Shown here in pieces: positions 24,892 to 49,259 of a stretch of 64,000 nt of DNA; position 1 is the stretch's first letter; each line of letters opens with the position of its first letter. The notes under the pieces are model-generated. The model was not told the DNA's origin, did no database searches, and saw only the letters and a program-made list of their open reading frames with translations. A program made the translations under genes and the position numbers. The stretch lies in NCBI RefSeq assembly GCF_002761295.1, contig NZ_CP017881.1:1-64000 (forward strand). Direction: 5' to 3'. This DNA comes from Methanohalophilus portucalensis. GTDB lineage: Archaea; Halobacteriota; Methanosarcinia; Methanosarcinales; Methanosarcinaceae.

Positions 24892-25294
24892 AGGTATCAA
24901 AATGATCCTATCATCTAAACCCTTTAATGAGATTCTTTGTCATGCTGGCGGAGTGAGTTTTGCCGGTTTTTTATTGAAGATACTTTCTTGGTAATCGGCT
25001 TCTAAGCCGGATGTCTGGCAAGCCTGTTGATTTCTGTCATATCCTTCCTGTAAGAAATCGTTCTATCCTATGTATTCAACTGTTCACTTTCAGTTCGATG
25101 ATATGGTCAGAAATTATTTATTATGTGGCATAGTTAGAACATAATGCAACATCATAAAAAGATGTTAGTGGGGTTCAGCCAGTCTTGACGGAATAACTGA
25201 AACCCCGTGCCCGGAGGCAGGTTATACTTTGCTGTTTGTATTATATAAGCGTAGCTTTGCCTCTGTGATTTAATAAATTTAAGAGGTAAAATAA
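24892..25294. other. 403-base intergenic region at the edge of an AT-rich island
   Basis: No intact gene is seen. A short hairpin (CGGC/GCCG around TTCTAA) lies near 24999-25012. A hairpin-rich 3' relic resembling the end of an IS200/IS605-type tnpB lies at 25169-25258 and is listed separately. The last 30 bases hold AAGAGGTAAAATAA, the ribosome site of the secreted-protein gene at 25295. Confidence 0.5.
25169..25258 (+). pseudogene. possible relic of the 3' end of a TnpB-type element
   Basis: A frame read directly after a stop gives WGSASLDGITETPCPEAGYT, a pattern I associate from memory with the disordered C-terminus of archaeal IS1341-type TnpB proteins. The same bases form two hairpins: GGGGTT-CAG paired with CTG-a-AACCCC (25170-25206) and TGCC-CGGA-GGCA (25208-25219). 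Such hairpins mark the right end of IS200/IS605 elements. No TnpB body with its RuvC motifs remains upstream, so at most a scar is left. Confidence 0.3.
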
Positions 25295-26047
25295 ATGAAA
25301 ATGAATGTCAAATTTGGAATAGGTGCAATGCTAACAGCAATGTTGTTGGTTAGCATGGTCTTTTCACCAGATGTGAGTGCACAGCCGATGCAAGATTCAA
25401 AACAAGAAACAAAGATAATAATTGAACCGAATTTTGAATTGGAACAAGGTTTAGTAGATGCATTAAATTCTAATTTATATAATGCATCCAAAGACGACAT
25501 AATTTCTAACTATATTAATAACAATAAAGAAAAAATTAAGGCACAAAAAGATGTCAATATAGCAACATTAAAAGGTGATGAATTAAGGAGTTATACCTTA
25601 AAAGATGGTTCAGATATAATTTTTTCAGGCGATTGGACATTTTACGTGAGTGAGATAAAAGAAGAACAAATAAATCCATTGACTAGAGCTGGTATATCTT
25701 ATACCCCTATTATTACACATTCTTATTCCGCGTATAGTTGGGTAGGACCAAGATTATTCTCTATATATACAAAAGGATATTTTGAATATGACGGAACCAC
25801 TGTCGAGGCCCATCATATGGACTCTTGGTATACAAGAGGTACACTCAGTGTATGGCAAGTCTCTAATTGGGAAGAGGGTAAATATGATCACAGTTCTGGA
25901 ACCTATTCTGAATTTTATGGTAGAGGAAATTTCTATTTTGGCTTTGAAATTGATGGTGGTAATTTAATACTGCAAGATGAATATATTAATCTCTACGTAA
26001 AATGTGATGAAGGTGGGGATTATGAAAAAGAAATGACTAAATACTAA
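25295..26047 (+). CDS. secreted protein of unknown function
   Basis: The 250-residue product has a clear signal peptide (residues 1-30: basic start, hydrophobic core, cleavage around SAQ). A lysine/asparagine-rich propeptide-like region follows (about 31-125). The C-terminal half (about 130-250) is rich in Tyr, Ser, Trp and Gly with alternating strands, suggesting a small beta domain; one Cys is near the end. I recognise no family. The ATG follows AAGAGGTAAAATAA. A tiny two-helix membrane protein gene lies 154 bases downstream, and the same arrangement recurs twice more in the window. Composition is AT-rich compared with the housekeeping genes. Confidence 0.7.
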   Translation: MKMNVKFGIGAMLTAMLLVSMVFSPDVSAQPMQDSKQETKIIIEPNFELEQGLVDALNSNLYNASKDDIISNYINNNKEKIKAQKDVNIATLKGDELRSYTLKDGSDIIFSGDWTFYVSEIKEEQINPLTRAGISYTPIITHSYSAYSWVGPRLFSIYTKGYFEYDGTTVEAHHMDSWYTRGTLSVWQVSNWEEGKYDHSSGTYSEFYGRGNFYFGFEIDGGNLILQDEYINLYVKCDEGGDYEKEMTKY

Positions 26048-26201
26048 TCTAAAAAAGTTCCTTGTTTTAGTCATTTGTATACAATCATTGAATATTTGCT
26101 TGTATGGTTTTGTAGAGGACAAGTAACATATATCAAATACAAATTTCTAGTAGAAATTGATCTTCTTCAAAACCGTATCTTGTTTATAGGAGGCTTATGC
26201 A

Positions 26202-26387
26202 ATGAATTCAGAATTTAAATTAATATTTAGTTTAACTTTCATTGCTTTTTTCATATTAAATATTATCAATTTGTTTGAACTTACAGTTGTGGTGGTTATA
26301 GGTTCTATTTTTATATCATTGATAGAATCAGTTATCCTGTCAGTTATTTTGTTTTTAATTTATCGCTTAATTATTAAAACAGCTTAA
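26202..26387 (+). CDS. small two-helix membrane protein
   Basis: The 61-residue product is almost entirely hydrophobic, with two predicted membrane helices (about residues 6-27 and 29-56) and a basic C-terminus (YRLIIKTA). The ribosome site AGGAGG sits 8 bases before the ATG, which argues for a real gene despite its size. No family recognised. It follows the secreted protein gene at 25295 on the same strand, like the small membrane genes at 27623 and 47726 that follow other secreted-protein genes. Confidence 0.6.
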   Translation: MNSEFKLIFSLTFIAFFILNIINLFELTVVVVIGSIFISLIESVILSVILFLIYRLIIKTA

Positions 26388-26772
26388 TTCAAAAAGGACA
26401 ATTGGATGGTATGGTCTTAATGTATTTGAATTGTAGTTCACTTCGGATAAAAAAATTACAAGTATACAAATTGCATGATGGTCTGTATCGATTAAATAAT
26501 GGAAGGAGAATTGTTGAGATCAATAGCAATACTTCCTTTTCTTTTTGAGAATTTGTGTACCCGATGAAGCCGGACTTATTTTCAGTAAGCACTTTATTAA
26601 TTTCATCTGGTTTTCTTCGTTACGTTTGCCAACATTTCATTTATGGTCCGATGCAGAAAAAGGAAAGGCTGGTGCCACCTTTCATTTCTTTGATACCGGT
26701 CCATATGTTGAGATCAAGATCAAATGATTTACTTGCTGAAATACCAGGTTCTGACTTAGATATAACCCTACT
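26388..26772. other. AT-rich region with a possible gene fragment
   Basis: No intact gene is convincing. A frame at 26545-26727 ends with DAEKGKAGATFHFFDTGP and a few more residues, which looks like the end of a secreted domain, but its first part is low-complexity and lacks a ribosome site. It may be a decayed gene next to the broken one that follows. Confidence 0.35.
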
Positions 26773-27551
26773 TTGACTGTCAAACTTGGGTTGTTAGTTT
26801 AGCATTTGTTCCTGCAGCAACTGCAAAAGCTGAACTTACTTGGCAAGAACAAATGCTGGAATCTAATGGAATTTATGTTAATGATTTTGATGCCGAAACG
26901 ACCAGTTATGAAAAAGTTGGAGATGAAATTCACTATGAAGGTGATTTCAAGATTGATGTTGAGAAAAAAGTGGATGACAAATTCAAAATGTTAAAAACAA
27001 AAGGAACATTTGAAGGTACAATAAAACCAGATGGTTCGATGCAGGTTGAATATATTGGTAACAATTTTAATTTACACATGATTTTGTCAAATATTGGAAA
27101 AAATCAAGAAACCATTTTGTACCAATTTGATCAGGTAATGACAGTTGATGGTAAAACAAAAAAGACAAATAAAATAGTGCAGGTTCCTAATGAACAAATT
27201 GCTGATGTGGATGGAGGAATGGGAACAGATATAAGTGAAAATGAGGAATTTGTTAGCCCGTTTAGTTCAAAAACCAAAGTTGATCTTCCAAGTACGGCAC
27301 CGTGGAGCTCCACTTTAATTTATGATGATATTCAGTATGCAGATATTCTAGCAACAGGTGCTATTCTTACTGGAATATTGTCATATTTTGGTCTAGCTCA
27401 GGCAGCTGCATTGTCTGCCATCGCTGTTGCAGTTGGTTATGCAATAGCTGAGTATGGTGATGTTGACACACGTGACATATATCTCGGTTTTTTCTTGTGT
27501 CTAAGCCCATCGAGTCCGATGCATGTTGAAGTCGATTATTTTTACGTTTGA
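26773..27551 (+). pseudogene. secreted protein gene with frameshift in its signal peptide
   Basis: From 26853 (ATG) the frame runs 232 codons; it is open back to 26766 without a standard start and reads SLAFVPAATAKAELTW, the end of a signal peptide. In the frame one base over, TTG at 26773 begins MTVKLGLLV and then hits TAG. One extra T in the run at 26798-26800 would join them into an intact signal peptide, so either a one-base deletion or a sequencing error is present. The mature part has a charged region (30-165), then a hydrophobic Ala/Gly-rich stretch (ATGAILTGILSYFGLAQAAA and beyond) near the end, as in some membrane-active secreted peptides. Function unknown. Two small paralogous membrane proteins follow. 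Confidence 0.6.
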
Positions 27552-27622
27552 AGGGGAAGTTGTCTTCTCCTTTCATATAATTTAAATTTATTATTAATTA
27601 ATGAATTAATATGGGAATTTGA

Positions 27623-27808
27623 ATGGATAGGATATTAGGTAATGTGATCTTTTATTTTTTTATAAGTGTAGCTCTTGTAACCGCATTTTATAATGCTTAT
27701 ATGGAATGGTTCAAGGATGAATTGAATCCGTTTATTTTATTTCTTACATTGATCTTTTCATTAATTGCAGCTTTCTTTAGAAAATATATTATTAGACAAG
27801 AAAAGTAA
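27623..27808 (+). CDS. small two-helix membrane protein, copy 1 of a tandem pair
   Basis: The 61-residue product has two hydrophobic helices (about 7-27 and 36-53) separated by a short polar loop with WFKDE, and a basic tail. It shares the pattern FYNAY...WFKDE and overall length with the next gene, so the two are paralogs from a local duplication. It starts 71 bases after the frameshifted secreted-protein gene. No known family recognised; a role in protection from or export of the neighbouring secreted product is only a guess. Confidence 0.6.
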   Translation: MDRILGNVIFYFFISVALVTAFYNAYMEWFKDELNPFILFLTLIFSLIAAFFRKYIIRQEK

Positions 27809-27895
27809 ACAATCATATTTTTTATCATGACTATGTTTGAAATAAATAGTCATCTTTACATATTTAATTAAAATGCACTAACAGGAAGAAATTTA

Positions 27896-28087
27896 ATGAA
27901 AATAAAATTAGTTGATCTACTATTTTACCTTTTTGTGATTTTTACATTTGTATCAGCATTTTATAACGCTTATTTGGGATGGTTCAAAGATGAATTCAGC
28001 CAAAAGATTATGTATTTAACCTTTTTATCTATGTTATTTATGGCTGGTTTAATAACTAAATTTTCTAAAATGAAATCTGATAACTAA
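27896..28087 (+). CDS. small two-helix membrane protein, copy 2 of a tandem pair
   Basis: The 63-residue product parallels the preceding gene: helix 1 with LLFYLFVIFTFVSAFYNAY, loop with WFKDEF, helix 2 with LTFLSMLFMAGLI, then a Lys-rich tail. AGGAAG lies 8 bases before the ATG. Preservation of the loop motif in two diverged copies suggests that both are expressed and under selection. It is followed after 126 bases by a membrane-anchored protein gene. Confidence 0.6.
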   Translation: MKIKLVDLLFYLFVIFTFVSAFYNAYLGWFKDEFSQKIMYLTFLSMLFMAGLITKFSKMKSDN

Positions 28088-28213: not shown

Positions 28214-28636
28214 TTGGTCAAAATAATACACGTGGTAATGCTATTTATTGTCATAATCGGTTTAGTGGGTTTCACTGAATTTACCACAGATGAACCTGAA
28301 AAAGACATACGATCTGAAATACTGAACGTTAGTTATGCAGATGTAACTAAAATATCGATCATAAACGGATTAAGCGGGGATTCGATTGATATTAAAAATG
28401 GAAATAAGATAACTACTCTGGTAAATTGTATTTCCGGTTTCCCATTCACAGAAACGGAGGGGCAAAAAGATGTTAATGGATATTTGTATGCCCTCAATTT
28501 TTATGAAGGGGGACAACGAATATCAACAGTTACTATTGTAGGTGACGATATTGTTCAAATTAACGGAGTGTACTACAAATCCAATACTACACAAATTGAG
28601 AAATGCGTGACGGATGTATTTGAAAGTGGAAAATGA
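28214..28636 (+). CDS. membrane-anchored extracytoplasmic protein, unknown
   Basis: The 140-residue product begins with one hydrophobic segment (residues 3-20, VKIIHVVMLFIVIIGLVGF) and has a soluble domain of about 110 residues with two Cys (in VNCISG and IEKCVT), perhaps a disulfide outside the membrane. The start is TTG, supported by GGGGAGA 7 bases upstream. No family recognised. It closes the AT-rich island. Confidence 0.55.
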   Translation: MVKIIHVVMLFIVIIGLVGFTEFTTDEPEKDIRSEILNVSYADVTKISIINGLSGDSIDIKNGNKITTLVNCISGFPFTETEGQKDVNGYLYALNFYEGGQRISTVTIVGDDIVQINGVYYKSNTTQIEKCVTDVFESGK

Positions 28637-46425: not shown

Positions 46426-46842
46426 TCACTCAATGGCATGATGGAGTTCTAATGGTTCTTTAGGATTTTTATTTACTTCAATAATCAATAACTCTAAGTC
46501 CAGGTCTTCTGGATACTCTCCTGTAATTTGTCTCTTTGTTATGCTGTTGTCCAAAGTAATTTTATATAAATAAGTGTCTTTTTTCAGACTAATGGGAGTA
46601 GGTTTCAATGTTTCATTTGGAGCTATATTGTATGTTTTATTAAATCTGGAAATATTTTGTGAGTCGAGTATTTCTACTGTTACTGAATGAGCTGTATTAT
46701 CTGAGTTGCGTATGAAATATCTCAGGGTACCATTTTCATTTTTTGTAGTATCTGTTTGATCTGATAATGAAAATACAATGAAGAAAGCTATCGATGCTAG
46801 TACACAGATGGCTATAAATGTATAAGCGAATTTTTTATTCAT
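46426..46842 (-). CDS. membrane-anchored extracytoplasmic protein, unknown
   Basis: The roughly 138-residue product starts MNKKFAYTFIAICVLASIAF, one N-terminal membrane anchor or signal, and continues with a beta-rich domain resembling Ig-like folds (SVTVEILDSQNISRFNKTYN, LYKITLDNSITKRQITGEYP). No Cys. The ATG at 46842 has GAGGAAG upstream; a start 33 bases earlier is possible. It lies in the second AT-rich island, 68 bases downstream of another small membrane gene. Confidence 0.55.
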   Translation of the reverse strand: MNKKFAYTFIAICVLASIAFFIVFSLSDQTDTTKNENGTLRYFIRNSDNTAHSVTVEILDSQNISRFNKTYNIAPNETLKPTPISLKKDTYLYKITLDNSITKRQITGEYPEDLDLELLIIEVNKNPKEPLELHHAIE

Positions 46843-46910
46843 ATGTTCTTCCTCGTAAACTTTGAAATATACCACTCAAGACAAGGTCTTCAGCTTAATT
46901 TGGAATTGGT

Positions 46911-47141
46911 TCAGTGATTTCCGTTCCTGTTCCATAATTCACTTTCAGAACGATTTTTTCTGGAAGAAGTAGGATTTCTTTTCCAATCTCCTGCATATTT
47001 AAATAAAATTCCGCATAGAAATGAAGTTGTTAAGGCTACTCCAGCAGATCTTGGGTTCCCTGATACGAAATCAATAAGTTCGAATAATATGATTATTAGG
47101 GATATTTGGAATGCTATTCCTATAACTTTGTTTCTTTCCAT
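46911..47141 (-). CDS. small two-helix membrane protein, unknown
   Basis: The 76-residue product has two hydrophobic segments (about 6-26 and 34-50) and a polar, Arg/Ser/Asn-rich tail. TGTGATGG precedes the ATG, a weak ribosome site. No family recognised. It belongs with the small membrane proteins of the AT-rich islands. Confidence 0.45.
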   Translation of the reverse strand: MERNKVIGIAFQISLIIILFELIDFVSGNPRSAGVALTTSFLCGILFKYAGDWKRNPTSSRKNRSESELWNRNGNH

Positions 47142-47725
47142 GCCATCACATTTTATTAGTAGGCTAAGTAAAAAGATGTTAAAGAGCAGTAAGAAATTTA
47201 AGTATTATTATACAGGTTATACCAATGTGAACCACTTTTTACTCTTATGTACACTAGTGCTGGATATGAAAGAATATTGGAGTATGGGATTCATACATCG
47301 AGACTTACATCAGAGTTTTGTTCATACCAGTACCAATTTTCTATTCCAAGGCCTATAATTATGCCCAAAGCTTCTGTAATTGTCACCGGTCCATCCGCAA
47401 GAATGCCTGTTAGATTATACAGTGTCAAAACCAACAACAATCTTGCTTTAGGGCGTTTTGGGGTCCAAGCCGACTCTGCAAATTCAGTTTGGATCCCTTT
47501 TCACATTATGGCAATGCGACATTGCAAAAATGTTTCTTAATCTATATAACTATTGTGGCCATATCCTCCAACTGTATGATCTGCAATAATAAAAAATGAC
47601 TTTGTAGAATATATCCTTTGTATATCATAGAGTGTTTGACATACTTGGCAAGTGTCCACATATTTAAAAAAGGATTTCTACAGAACCGTTTTGTTTTTAT
47701 TTATATTGTTATTAATTATGCATTT
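47142..47725. other. 584-base region with repeat copy and a weak minus-strand frame
   Basis: Between two minus-strand small membrane genes lies repeat copy A (47415-47665). On the minus strand a frame open from 47500 to 47291 lacks ATG and GTG; from a TTG at 47440 it encodes about 49 residues with a hydrophobic stretch (RLLLVLTLYNLTGILADGP) and ITEALGIIIGLGIENWYWY. There is no ribosome site. It could be the remains of another small membrane gene whose start region is inside the repeat. Confidence 0.4.
47415..47665 (-). repeat. 251-bp direct repeat, copy A
   Basis: It aligns without gaps to 48706-48956 (offset 1291 bases), about 90 percent identical by hand count, with a 50-base perfect block near 47462-47511. 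Differences are mostly transitions. The two copies lie in the same orientation on either side of a secreted-protein/small-membrane-protein gene pair. Confidence 0.9.
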
Positions 47726-48001: not shown

Positions 48002-48655
48002 TCAACTTACGTGTTCCCAGTCAGTGGAACTTATTCCATTGAAACTTGGTGGTGTAACACCTGATGGATAAACTCCAGAATACTGACCAATTACACGATA
48101 ATATGCTGAAGATGAATAATCATAAGTATCCTCGGCTTCAAGTTCGTAAACATTGTTTTCGGACTCAAGTTCAATACCAACGATCTCTTCATCCCCATCA
48201 TCACGCCATAAATGTGTGAGAACAGACATACTTGGTATCTTTGTATATGGGGTAGGTAACACCATTCTCTGCCAGGTTTTGTACGTAATTTCTGAACCAT
48301 CATAGTCCAACTCAGAATTCGCGACCCCGAAATAAACACTTCGTGTTAGTCCAGTGGTAGCTGTGAATGTTTGTTTAGAATCAGGCCCTTCTGCAGCAGG
48401 ATTTGTCCAGGATACTTCCATGTCATAATATGACTTTGTTGTTGCATCTGGAGATTTATCATAAGCTTCAGGGAACAACTGTTCAATATACTCTCCATAT
48501 GTAATATCTGTACCCCACAATTTATTTGCAAGTTCAAGTCTTTCTTTCTCTGTTATAGAGGCAGAATCTGAGTTTGCACTTCCCACCCCTACAAATAGTA
48601 TCATCAGCATGATAACCAGTGATACTACCATTGTTCGATTTATTGTTTTGTTCAT
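48002..48655 (-). CDS. secreted protein of unknown function
   Basis: The 217-residue product has a signal peptide (1-27, cleavage near SANS), then a mainly polar, Tyr/Thr/Ser-rich region, with an LWGTDITYGEYIEQLFPEAY helix near residue 55 and a strand-rich C-terminal half (about 85-217). No Cys in the mature part. GAGGTAA precedes the ATG. No family recognised. It starts 50 bases after repeat copy B (reading on its own strand) and is followed by a small membrane protein gene. Confidence 0.7.
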   Translation of the reverse strand: MNKTINRTMVVSLVIMLMILFVGVGSANSDSASITEKERLELANKLWGTDITYGEYIEQLFPEAYDKSPDATTKSYYDMEVSWTNPAAEGPDSKQTFTATTGLTRSVYFGVANSELDYDGSEITYKTWQRMVLPTPYTKIPSMSVLTHLWRDDGDEEIVGIELESENNVYELEAEDTYDYSSSAYYRVIGQYSGVYPSGVTPPSFNGISSTDWEHVS

Positions 48656-49259
48656 TTCTTTCTTTACCTCATTTCAATTTACTCCTGAGGCAAGACCCGC
48701 AAACCTTAAACTGTATCAAAGCCAACAATAATCTTGCTTCAGGGCGTTTTGAGGTCCAAGCCGACTCTGCAAATTCAGTTTGGATCCCTTTTCACATTAT
48801 GGCACTGTGACATTGCAAAAATGTTTCTCAATCTATATCACTATTGTGACCATATCATCCAACTGTATGATCCACAATAATAAAAAATGACTTTGTAGAA
48901 TATATCCTTTGTATATCATAGAGTGTTTGATATACCTGGCAAGTGTTTATATGTTTAATATGATTCCTTTTTATTGATTCCAATATCCTCCTTTGACCTT
49001 ATTTTCTTCTTACTGGAACGATGTTGGAAATTTGTTGTACATCTCGATACATTCTGATTTTAAAACATAATTAAGGTATTTCTGGTAAAACTTCTCAACA
49101 ACGAAGTGACTATATATTATACAAAACATTCTTCTCAAGATACTATTTTATATGGTTTCGACAACTTTTGTATATTATAATTTGAACATACTTTTTGTGG
49201 AAACAACCTCTAATAAATATTATATAGTCGCGTAGCTAATTACATTTGGGTGTATCATT
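48656..49259. other. 604-base intergenic region with repeat copy B
   Basis: The region separates the divergent secreted-protein gene and the PGF-CTERM protein gene. It holds repeat copy B at 48706-48956. Near 49217-49228 AATATTATATAG is a good TATA candidate for the gene at 49260, and GGGTG lies just before its GTG start. The rest is AT-rich and featureless. Confidence 0.5.
48706..48956 (-). repeat. 251-bp direct repeat, copy B
   Basis: This copy, read on the minus strand, ends 50 bases upstream of the secreted-protein ATG at 48655 and therefore probably contains its promoter or leader. It aligns without gaps to copy A at 47415-47665. Reading frames across the two copies differ at several amino acids and contain stops, so the repeat is probably not coding. 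Confidence 0.9.

What the first reader, a model, noticed from the sequence alone, without database searches (positions are those of the whole stretch)
25295..28087. Repeated module: secreted protein followed by tiny two-helix membrane protein(s)
Seen: three times in the window a signal-peptide protein of about 217-250 residues is followed on the same strand by a 61-63 residue, two-helix membrane protein: 25295 with 26202; 26773/26853 with 27623 and 27896; and 48655-48002 with 47914-47726 (minus strand). The secreted proteins do not look alike by eye, but the second has an Ala/Gly-rich hydrophobic C-terminal stretch. Inference: this resembles a secreted bacteriocin-type precursor with a dedicated immunity protein, so these could be archaeocin-like loci. 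Alternatively they are surface proteins with small membrane partners.
Basis: partly seen in the sequence, partly recalled or inferred. Interest (0 to 1): 0.75.

Follow-up and report, generated by a model that had tools for sequence, protein, structure and literature searches.

The report
Methanogen secreted-effector and immunity cassettes
A salt-loving methanogen carries swappable gene cassettes, each coding for a secreted protein and, just behind it, a small membrane protein that is kept even when the secreted partner has decayed; this is the pattern expected of a toxin and its antidote, and suggests that methanogens fight their neighbours with an arsenal that has not been tested in the laboratory.

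Summary
The repeated module is real, with one correction: B (26853) has no intact signal peptide here and is a decayed gene, while both its small partners are intact. The three secreted families (A, B, C) are unrelated to each other; no Pfam-A, NCBIfam or PDB sequence model matches them. Across Methanosarcinaceae, B is followed by its 2-TM gene in 10 of 10 loci, a fourth family D (decayed in the window at 47213-47377, intact at 1.18 Mb) by a membrane gene in 19 of 19, C in 8 of 11, A in about 10 of 19. D has a conserved N-domain and a hypervariable hydrophobic hairpin; its 2-TM partner tracks the hairpin (partial r 0.73). Effectors decay while partners stay intact at least eight times. The window site is empty in three congeners and holds other effector cassettes in two; orphan partners of lost effectors remain in the window. 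Cassettes share a promoter-signal-peptide head that also drives proteases and Cys-rich precursors. Best explanation: interference-competition effectors with dedicated membrane immunity proteins, exchanged as cassettes. No activity has been shown.

The parts
25209..25294 (+). Shared promoter head of cassette A: GGAGGCA....TATATAAGCGTAGCTTTGCCTC....GAGGTAAA
   Evidence: Core at 25242-25263; 7 sites in this genome (0 control), all directly upstream of secreted-protein genes
25295..26047 (+). A: secreted effector candidate, 250 aa, signal peptide + helical linker + beta domain
   Evidence: ORF; homologues; AlphaFold2 pLDDT 75.9, beta domain 96-250 like lmo2686/Zea 4k15, VIA Z 8.8, 94 residues, 2.5 A
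26202..26387 (+). a: cognate 61 aa 2-TM protein of A (immunity candidate)
   Evidence: Homologues after A in 10 loci, conserved N20 and E42 inside helices
26790..27551 (+). psi-B: decayed hydrophobic-hairpin effector; beta N-domain, hairpin helices 162-178/182-201, short beta tail; signal peptide frameshifted
27623..27808 (+). b1: 61 aa 2-TM partner of B
   Evidence: Homologue directly after B in 10/10 loci
27896..28087 (+). b2: 63 aa 2-TM paralogue of b1
   Evidence: 36% identical to b1; 109-nt direct repeat 27615/27888 at 73%
28214..28636 (+). Orphan membrane-anchored partner (140 aa) of a C39-like peptidase that is absent here
   Evidence: Near-identical gene follows a C39_2 peptidase (332/333 aa) in G036 and G031 at the same site
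48706..48958 (-). Cassette head upstream of C (copy 1 of the 253-nt repeat)
   Evidence: 92% identical to 47415-47667; three copies upstream of three cassettes in G036
48002..48655 (-). C: secreted effector candidate, 217 aa
47726..47914 (-). c: 62 aa 2-TM partner of C
   Evidence: Membrane gene follows C in 8 of 11 loci
47415..47667 (-). Cassette head in front of psi-D (copy 2 of the repeat)
47213..47377 (-). psi-D: C-terminal remnant of hairpin effector D, one in-frame TGA
   Evidence: tblastn E 7e-8 and HMM E 4e-16 to D
46911..47141 (-). d: intact 2-TM partner of D (76 aa), retained after D decayed
   Evidence: tblastn E 1e-4 to d of G076; aligned with the type-2 d group
46426..46875 (-). 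Orphan membrane-anchored partner of an M12B metalloprotease absent here (start probably 46845)
   Evidence: 95% identical DNA to the gene following a 422 aa reprolysin-like protease at the syntenic site in G036

Best explanation
Each module is an interference-competition cassette: a promoter/signal-peptide head, a secreted antagonistic effector, and a dedicated small membrane protein that protects the producer. B and D probably act through their Ala/Gly-rich hydrophobic hairpin, inserted into the membrane of a competing archaeon or bacterium (pore or depolarisation); their 2-TM partners would bind the hairpin inside the producer's own membrane and block it. A would act as a secreted beta-rich, possibly ring-forming protein, and C by an unknown route. 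Shown: pairing, covariation of D hairpin and d, decay pattern, cassette hotspot, shared promoter. Inferred: secretion, toxicity, membrane insertion, immunity.
For: Pairing: B 10/10, D 19/19 (17 with 56-76 aa 2-TM, 2 with 3-TM), C 8/11, A 10/19. The a and b partner families are unrelated (hhalign probability 0.4%). In D the hairpin is the most variable region (35% mean identity versus 62% N-domain, 63% tail), and d distance follows the D C-terminal region (r 0.88; partial 0.73 given the N-domain, p 0.0002; N given C 0.13). Tandem D1d1/D2d2 in G081 are 95-100% identical at DNA level in the N-part but 55-80% in the hairpin and 52-83% in d, while D2d2 is 93-97% identical to the G083 module through hairpin and d. 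Between hairpin types d has dN/dS up to 2.4 and the hairpin about 1.7-2.5; within types mostly under 0.5. Effector decayed, partner intact: psi-B and psi-D in the window, B and D in G083, D in G031, A in SMBSF02, Cys-rich effector in G035, truncated C in G068. Site empty in G032, G034, G035 and differently filled in G036, G031.
Against: No activity, secretion or immunity data. About half of A homologues lack the 2-TM gene (the DIYGRG..EFYDNLYIKCDQ subtype in G082, G097, G035, G062, and others), so A is not lethal to its producer there or has another protector. The covariation of d with the hairpin could come partly from physical linkage: the hairpin lies nearer to d than the N-domain does. dN/dS above 1 rests on small counts (single-pair Fisher p 0.03-0.8). 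B and D hairpins are not detectably homologous. The promoter also drives ordinary-looking secreted proteases, so the regulon is not toxin-only.
Confidence: 0.68

Rival explanations
1. Secreted surface or matrix proteins with small membrane partners that anchor, export or assemble them (no toxicity).
For: A shared promoter and signal-peptide type with many other exported proteins; A resembles Zea, a secreted hexameric protein with no reported killing role (PMC6907008).
Against: An anchor or export partner should be lost when its client dies, but partners persist at least eight times; an anchor would not be expected to diversify together with a hydrophobic hairpin; patchy presence and an empty site in close relatives.
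Confidence: 0.15
2. Extracellular digestion/predation regulon: proteases, lipase-like enzymes and membrane-active proteins used to lyse other cells or scavenge, with partners as protease inhibitors or self-protection.
For: Same cassette head drives C39-like, M12B-like and weakly trypsin-like secreted proteins.
Against: Members of this genus grow on methylated C1 compounds (established knowledge), so scavenging protein is a weak benefit; does not explain allele-specific D/d diversification. It overlaps with the best explanation rather than excluding it.
Confidence: 0.12
3. Small genes are independent 2-TM proteins (for example phage-derived or stress proteins) whose position behind secreted genes is coincidental.
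For: Short hydrophobic ORFs are easily found by chance; A often lacks one.
Against: Background of 3/357 non-secreted and 0/45 other secreted genes; 10/10 and 19/19 conservation for B and D; family-specific homology; purifying selection on a and b.
Confidence: 0.03

Closest known systems
Archaeocins (halocins, halocin C8 family; sulfolobicins)
   Same: Archaeal secreted precursor with a hydrophobic C-terminal part and self-immunity; two promoter-mates in this genome (1.737 and 1.740 Mb) have Cys-rich hydrophobic C-termini of halocin-C8-like appearance.
   Different: A-D have no Cys-rich core; immunity candidate is a separate 2-TM gene, whereas halocin C8 immunity lies in the same precursor (own knowledge). 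No family model matched.
SdpC/SdpI cannibalism system of Bacillus subtilis
   Same: Secreted pre-pro-protein of about 200 aa with a hydrophobic helical hairpin near the C-terminus, paired with a membrane immunity protein (own knowledge).
   Different: No SdpC or SdpI model hit; partners have 2 TM helices and about 60 aa; D has a short beta tail after the hairpin.
Polymorphic toxin systems (PMC3482391)
   Same: Conserved N-part, variable C-terminal part, adjacent immunity gene, orphan immunity genes.
   Different: Small single secreted proteins, no trafficking or known toxin domain, membrane-type immunity.
VARTIG modules of Thermococcales (PMC8416519)
   Same: Hypervariable secreted protein followed by a matching small membrane protein; possible archaeal conflict system.
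   Different: No Ig-domain protein at the head; different lineage.
Zea/Lmo2686 (PDB 4k15, PMC6907008)
   Same: Beta domain of A superposes on it (Z 8.8, 94 residues, 2.5 A; next entry Z 4.9).
   Different: 6% identity; no hexamer or RNA-binding evidence for A; no 2-TM partner of Zea is mentioned in the passages read.

Membership tests
Bacteriocin/archaeocin with dedicated immunity (general kind) | Ribosomal precursor with export signal | tested here: met
   Signal-peptide-like N-termini in A, C, D and in B orthologues; psi-B lacks it. Hydropathy only, no SignalP run.
Bacteriocin/archaeocin with dedicated immunity (general kind) | Cognate immunity gene adjacent and conserved | tested here: met
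   B 10/10, D 19/19, C 8/11; A only 10/19. That the gene confers immunity is inferred.
Bacteriocin/archaeocin with dedicated immunity (general kind) | Antimicrobial activity and protection by the partner | not testable with these tools
   Needs cultures
Halocin C8 family | C-terminal Cys-rich peptide of about 76 aa | tested here: not met
   A-D C-termini have no Cys-rich core
Halocin C8 family | Match to a curated family model | tested here: inconclusive
   No halocin model reached threshold in Pfam-A or NCBIfam for A-D or for the Cys-rich promoter-mates; whether such a model is in these libraries was not checked
SdpC/SdpI | Secreted precursor with hydrophobic helical hairpin | tested here: met
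   B model helices 162-178 and 182-201 (pLDDT about 62, two-sequence alignment); D hydropathy
SdpC/SdpI | Sequence homology to SdpC or SdpI | tested here: not met
   No Pfam-A or NCBIfam match for secreted or small proteins
Polymorphic toxin systems | Constant N-part with variable C-terminal part and co-varying immunity | tested here: met
   D/d
Polymorphic toxin systems | Recognised trafficking or toxin domains | tested here: not met
   No Pfam-A domain in A-D; other cassettes carry peptidase domains
VARTIG | Ig-domain protein at the head of the locus | tested here: not met
   No Ig domain found in A-D
Zea-like proteins | Fold of the beta domain | tested here: met
   A versus 4k15: Foldseek probability 1.00, E 1.4e-3; VIA Z 8.8
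Zea-like proteins | Homohexameric ring and RNA binding | not tested
   No multimer prediction or binding data

The most novel reading that the evidence does not exclude
Methanosarcinaceae carry a promoter-linked, cassette-exchanging arsenal of secreted antagonistic effectors (hairpin pore formers, Zea-fold proteins, Cys-rich peptides, proteases, lipase-like proteins), each with its own membrane immunity protein. Short repeated promoter/signal-peptide heads let effector-immunity pairs be swapped by homologous recombination at fixed chromosomal sites. It would be the first such system known in methanogens.
Probability: 0.45. Interest if true: 0.85.

Novelty: new variant of a known kind. Interest (0 to 1): 0.68.

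Why it matters
Antagonism among methanogens is almost uncharacterised, and no methanogen archaeocin turned up in the literature library searched here. These loci give named gene pairs in culturable genera (Methanohalophilus, Methanosarcina, Methanococcoides), some with genetic tools, plus an internal control set of decayed effectors with surviving partners. That makes the question whether methanogens make bacteriocins directly testable. The D/d alleles offer an allele-specificity experiment like colicin-immunity swaps. The shared promoter gives a handle on when such weapons are deployed.

Tried and rejected
Pfam-A, NCBIfam and PDB profile searches for A-D and the small proteins gave only sub-threshold chance hits. 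B and D as one family: hhalign aligns only the shared signal peptide, so the resemblance of their C-termini is architectural at best. A shared signal peptide as proof of one toxin family: rejected, because the same type starts many other secreted proteins, including proteases. Viral origin: B and D profiles found no relative in IMG/VR; the C profile could not be scanned. PLSDB plasmids: no match for the Cys-rich protein. B fold: model too weak (pLDDT 55.9) and no convincing PDB match; an autotransporter barrel at Z 8.1 is close to the level at which common arrangements occur. Leukocidin-like hits for A (Z 4.4-4.9) are too weak to use. Structured RNA in the cassette head: one sub-threshold Rfam hit only. 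The paper most likely to hold prior predictions (Makarova et al. 2019, mBio 10:e00715-19) is not in the library; it is known here only from citations and memory, so some of these families may already be listed there as candidates.

Full report
SETTING. The window is the first 64 kb of a complete 2.08 Mb chromosome. Its genus is Methanohalophilus: congener G035 has a contig of exactly the length (1,823,601) of Methanohalophilus profundi NZ_QBKB01000002.1.

OBSERVATION. The ORFs exist as described. A (25295-26047) and a (26202-26387), and C (48655-48002) and c (47914-47726), are intact. B (26853-27551) is not: the signal peptide of its orthologues (for example L032, L034) survives only as fragments in two frames, with no start codon and no promoter. 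Its two partners b1 and b2 are open and are paralogues. In 464 kb of this genome 2 of 47 secreted-like genes are followed by a 50-80 aa 2-TM ORF, and these are A and C; 3 of 357 other genes are. Pairing with a 2-TM gene is therefore not a general property of secreted genes here. TM helices and signal peptides were called by hydropathy in a script, not by a trained predictor.

CONSERVATION OF THE PAIRS. In 112 Methanosarcinaceae genomes A is found in about 18 genomes, B in 10, C in 24. Signal-peptide-only hits to A were set aside. B is followed by a b-type gene in 10 of 10 loci, including a locus in another family of the phylum, G113. C is followed by a 59-71 aa 2-TM gene in 6 loci, by a 3-TM gene in 2, and by none in the rest. 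A is followed by an a-type gene in 10 of 19 loci; the subtype with 'DIYGRG..EFYDNLYIKCDQ' lacks it. The independent MAG G105 carries B-b-A-a in a row (the window has A-a-B-b-b). The a and b families are unrelated by profile comparison. Orphan b-like genes occur near other secreted genes in Methanococcoides.

A FOURTH FAMILY, D. Looking for B relatives led to D: 240-260 aa, signal peptide, N-domain, hydrophobic hairpin, tail 'YWxEQNSDGSLDVRIPYANI..KIGSHWY'. D is followed by a membrane gene in 19 of 19 loci, 17 of them 56-76 aa, and relatives in other families have 69-80 aa partners. The genome of the window has one intact D-d module at 1.179 Mb and a decayed one in the window: psi-D (47377-47213, one TGA, N-part missing) with intact d (47141-46911).

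DIVERSIFICATION. Among 14 D-d pairs the hairpin is the most variable region (mean identity 35%; N-domain 62%, tail 63%). Distances among d genes correlate with distances of the D C-terminal region (r 0.88), and still do after correction for the N-domain (partial r 0.73, permutation p 0.0002); the converse partial correlation is 0.13. Linkage contributes, because the hairpin is nearer to d. The tandem pair in G081 shows it directly: the N-part is 95-100% identical in DNA, the hairpin 55-80%, d 52-83%, while the second copy matches the G083 module at 93-97% across both hairpin and d. Between hairpin types d shows dN/dS up to 2.4 and the hairpin about 1.7-2.5, within types mostly below 0.5, on small counts. 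These are the marks expected of toxin-immunity alleles.

DECAY. Effectors are broken while partners stay open in the window (psi-B with b1/b2, psi-D with d), in G083 (B, and a second D), G031 (D, one-base deletion; d 63/64 identical to G036), SMBSF02 (A), G035 (Cys-rich protein, L227) and G068 (truncated C). No intact B or D without a partner was seen. Effector and partner gone or broken together: C in G031, A in G084 and G083.

CASSETTE EXCHANGE. The site of A-a-psiB-b-b lies between a dihydropteroate-synthase-like gene and a hydantoinase-like gene. It is empty (about 0.25 kb) in G032, G034 and G035, and filled with other cassettes in G036 (lipase-like 384 aa plus 6-TM; C39-like peptidase plus 140 aa partner) and G031 (the lipase-like label is from sequence appearance, no Pfam hit). 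The 140 aa partner of the C39 peptidase is present in the window as an orphan at 28214-28636. The C site behaves alike: G036 has a protease plus partner, C plus c, and an M12B protease plus partner; the window has C plus c, psi-D plus d, and the orphan partner of the M12B protease (46426-46875). Each cassette there is preceded by a copy of the same roughly 250-nt repeat. A regulator pair (secreted small protein and membrane winged-helix protein) stands divergently next to B in G109 and D in G076 and G000.

SHARED PROMOTER. Upstream of A lies GGAGGCA..TATATAAGCGTAGCTTTGCCTC. The core with up to 3 mismatches occurs 7 times in this genome and 18 times in four congeners, with almost no control hits; each site with a readable gene is about 50 nt upstream of a secreted-protein gene. 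Variants precede C, D and B orthologues. Promoter-mates include C39-like and weakly trypsin-like proteins and two precursors with Cys-rich hydrophobic C-termini, each followed by a 97-103 aa 3-TM gene.

STRUCTURE. A (11 sequences, pLDDT 75.9) has a beta domain at 96-250 whose best PDB match is Lmo2686/Zea 4k15 (Foldseek probability 1.00; VIA Z 8.8, 94 residues, 2.5 A; next entry Z 4.9). Zea is a secreted toroidal hexamer (PMC6907008). B (2 sequences, pLDDT 55.9) shows a beta N-domain, a flexible linker, two hairpin helices and two strands, with no reliable PDB match.

MECHANISM AND VERDICT. The most likely mechanism is secreted antagonistic effectors with dedicated membrane immunity; for B and D the hairpin is probably the membrane-active part and the 2-TM protein its in-membrane blocker. 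Pairing, covariation, decay asymmetry, cassette turnover and shared promoter are shown by sequence; secretion, killing and protection are inferred. By work-alike it resembles bacteriocin-immunity and small polymorphic toxin systems; membership in halocin C8, SdpC/SdpI or VARTIG is not supported. Families A-D are without a curated model in the libraries searched, so this is scored as a new variant of a known kind. Earlier candidate lists (Makarova et al. 2019) could not be read.

Noticed in passing
G000 1737.0 kb and 1740.4 kb (L199, L201): Two secreted precursors (206 and 213 aa) with Cys-rich hydrophobic C-termini, each followed by a 97-103 aa 3-TM gene and driven by the same promoter as A; halocin-C8-like in appearance. 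In G035 one is truncated while its 3-TM gene is intact (L227).
   Followed up: partly
L091 3319-4482; L099 9135-10346; L102 2033-3279; L177: Divergent regulator pair next to B or D modules: a small secreted protein ('DTITQGETNWHGK..EDYYI') and a membrane-anchored protein with two winged-helix domains; possible sensor and regulator of the cassettes.
   Followed up: partly
L053-L056 (Methanococcoides-like genomes G018-G025): Runs of b-like 60 aa 2-TM genes without an adjacent intact B, beside a larger membrane-anchored protein that contains the C-type 'KLYGTDITYGEYIKQVFPEAY' motif; looks like orphan immunity arrays.
   Followed up: no
window 47415-47667 and 48706-48958: 253-nt direct repeat (92%) upstream of two neighbouring cassettes; three copies in G036 and two in G031 at the syntenic locus.
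   Followed up: yes
L258 (G164) 1501-2244, minus-strand view: In a 1-Mb genome of another family of the phylum, a 247 aa protein with the same signal peptide type and a Cys-rich hydrophobic C-terminus followed by membrane genes.
   Followed up: no
L177 5486-6741, minus-strand view (G031): Remains of a D-like N-terminus and transposase-like fragments inside the hotspot, suggesting that mobile elements take part in cassette turnover.
   Followed up: no
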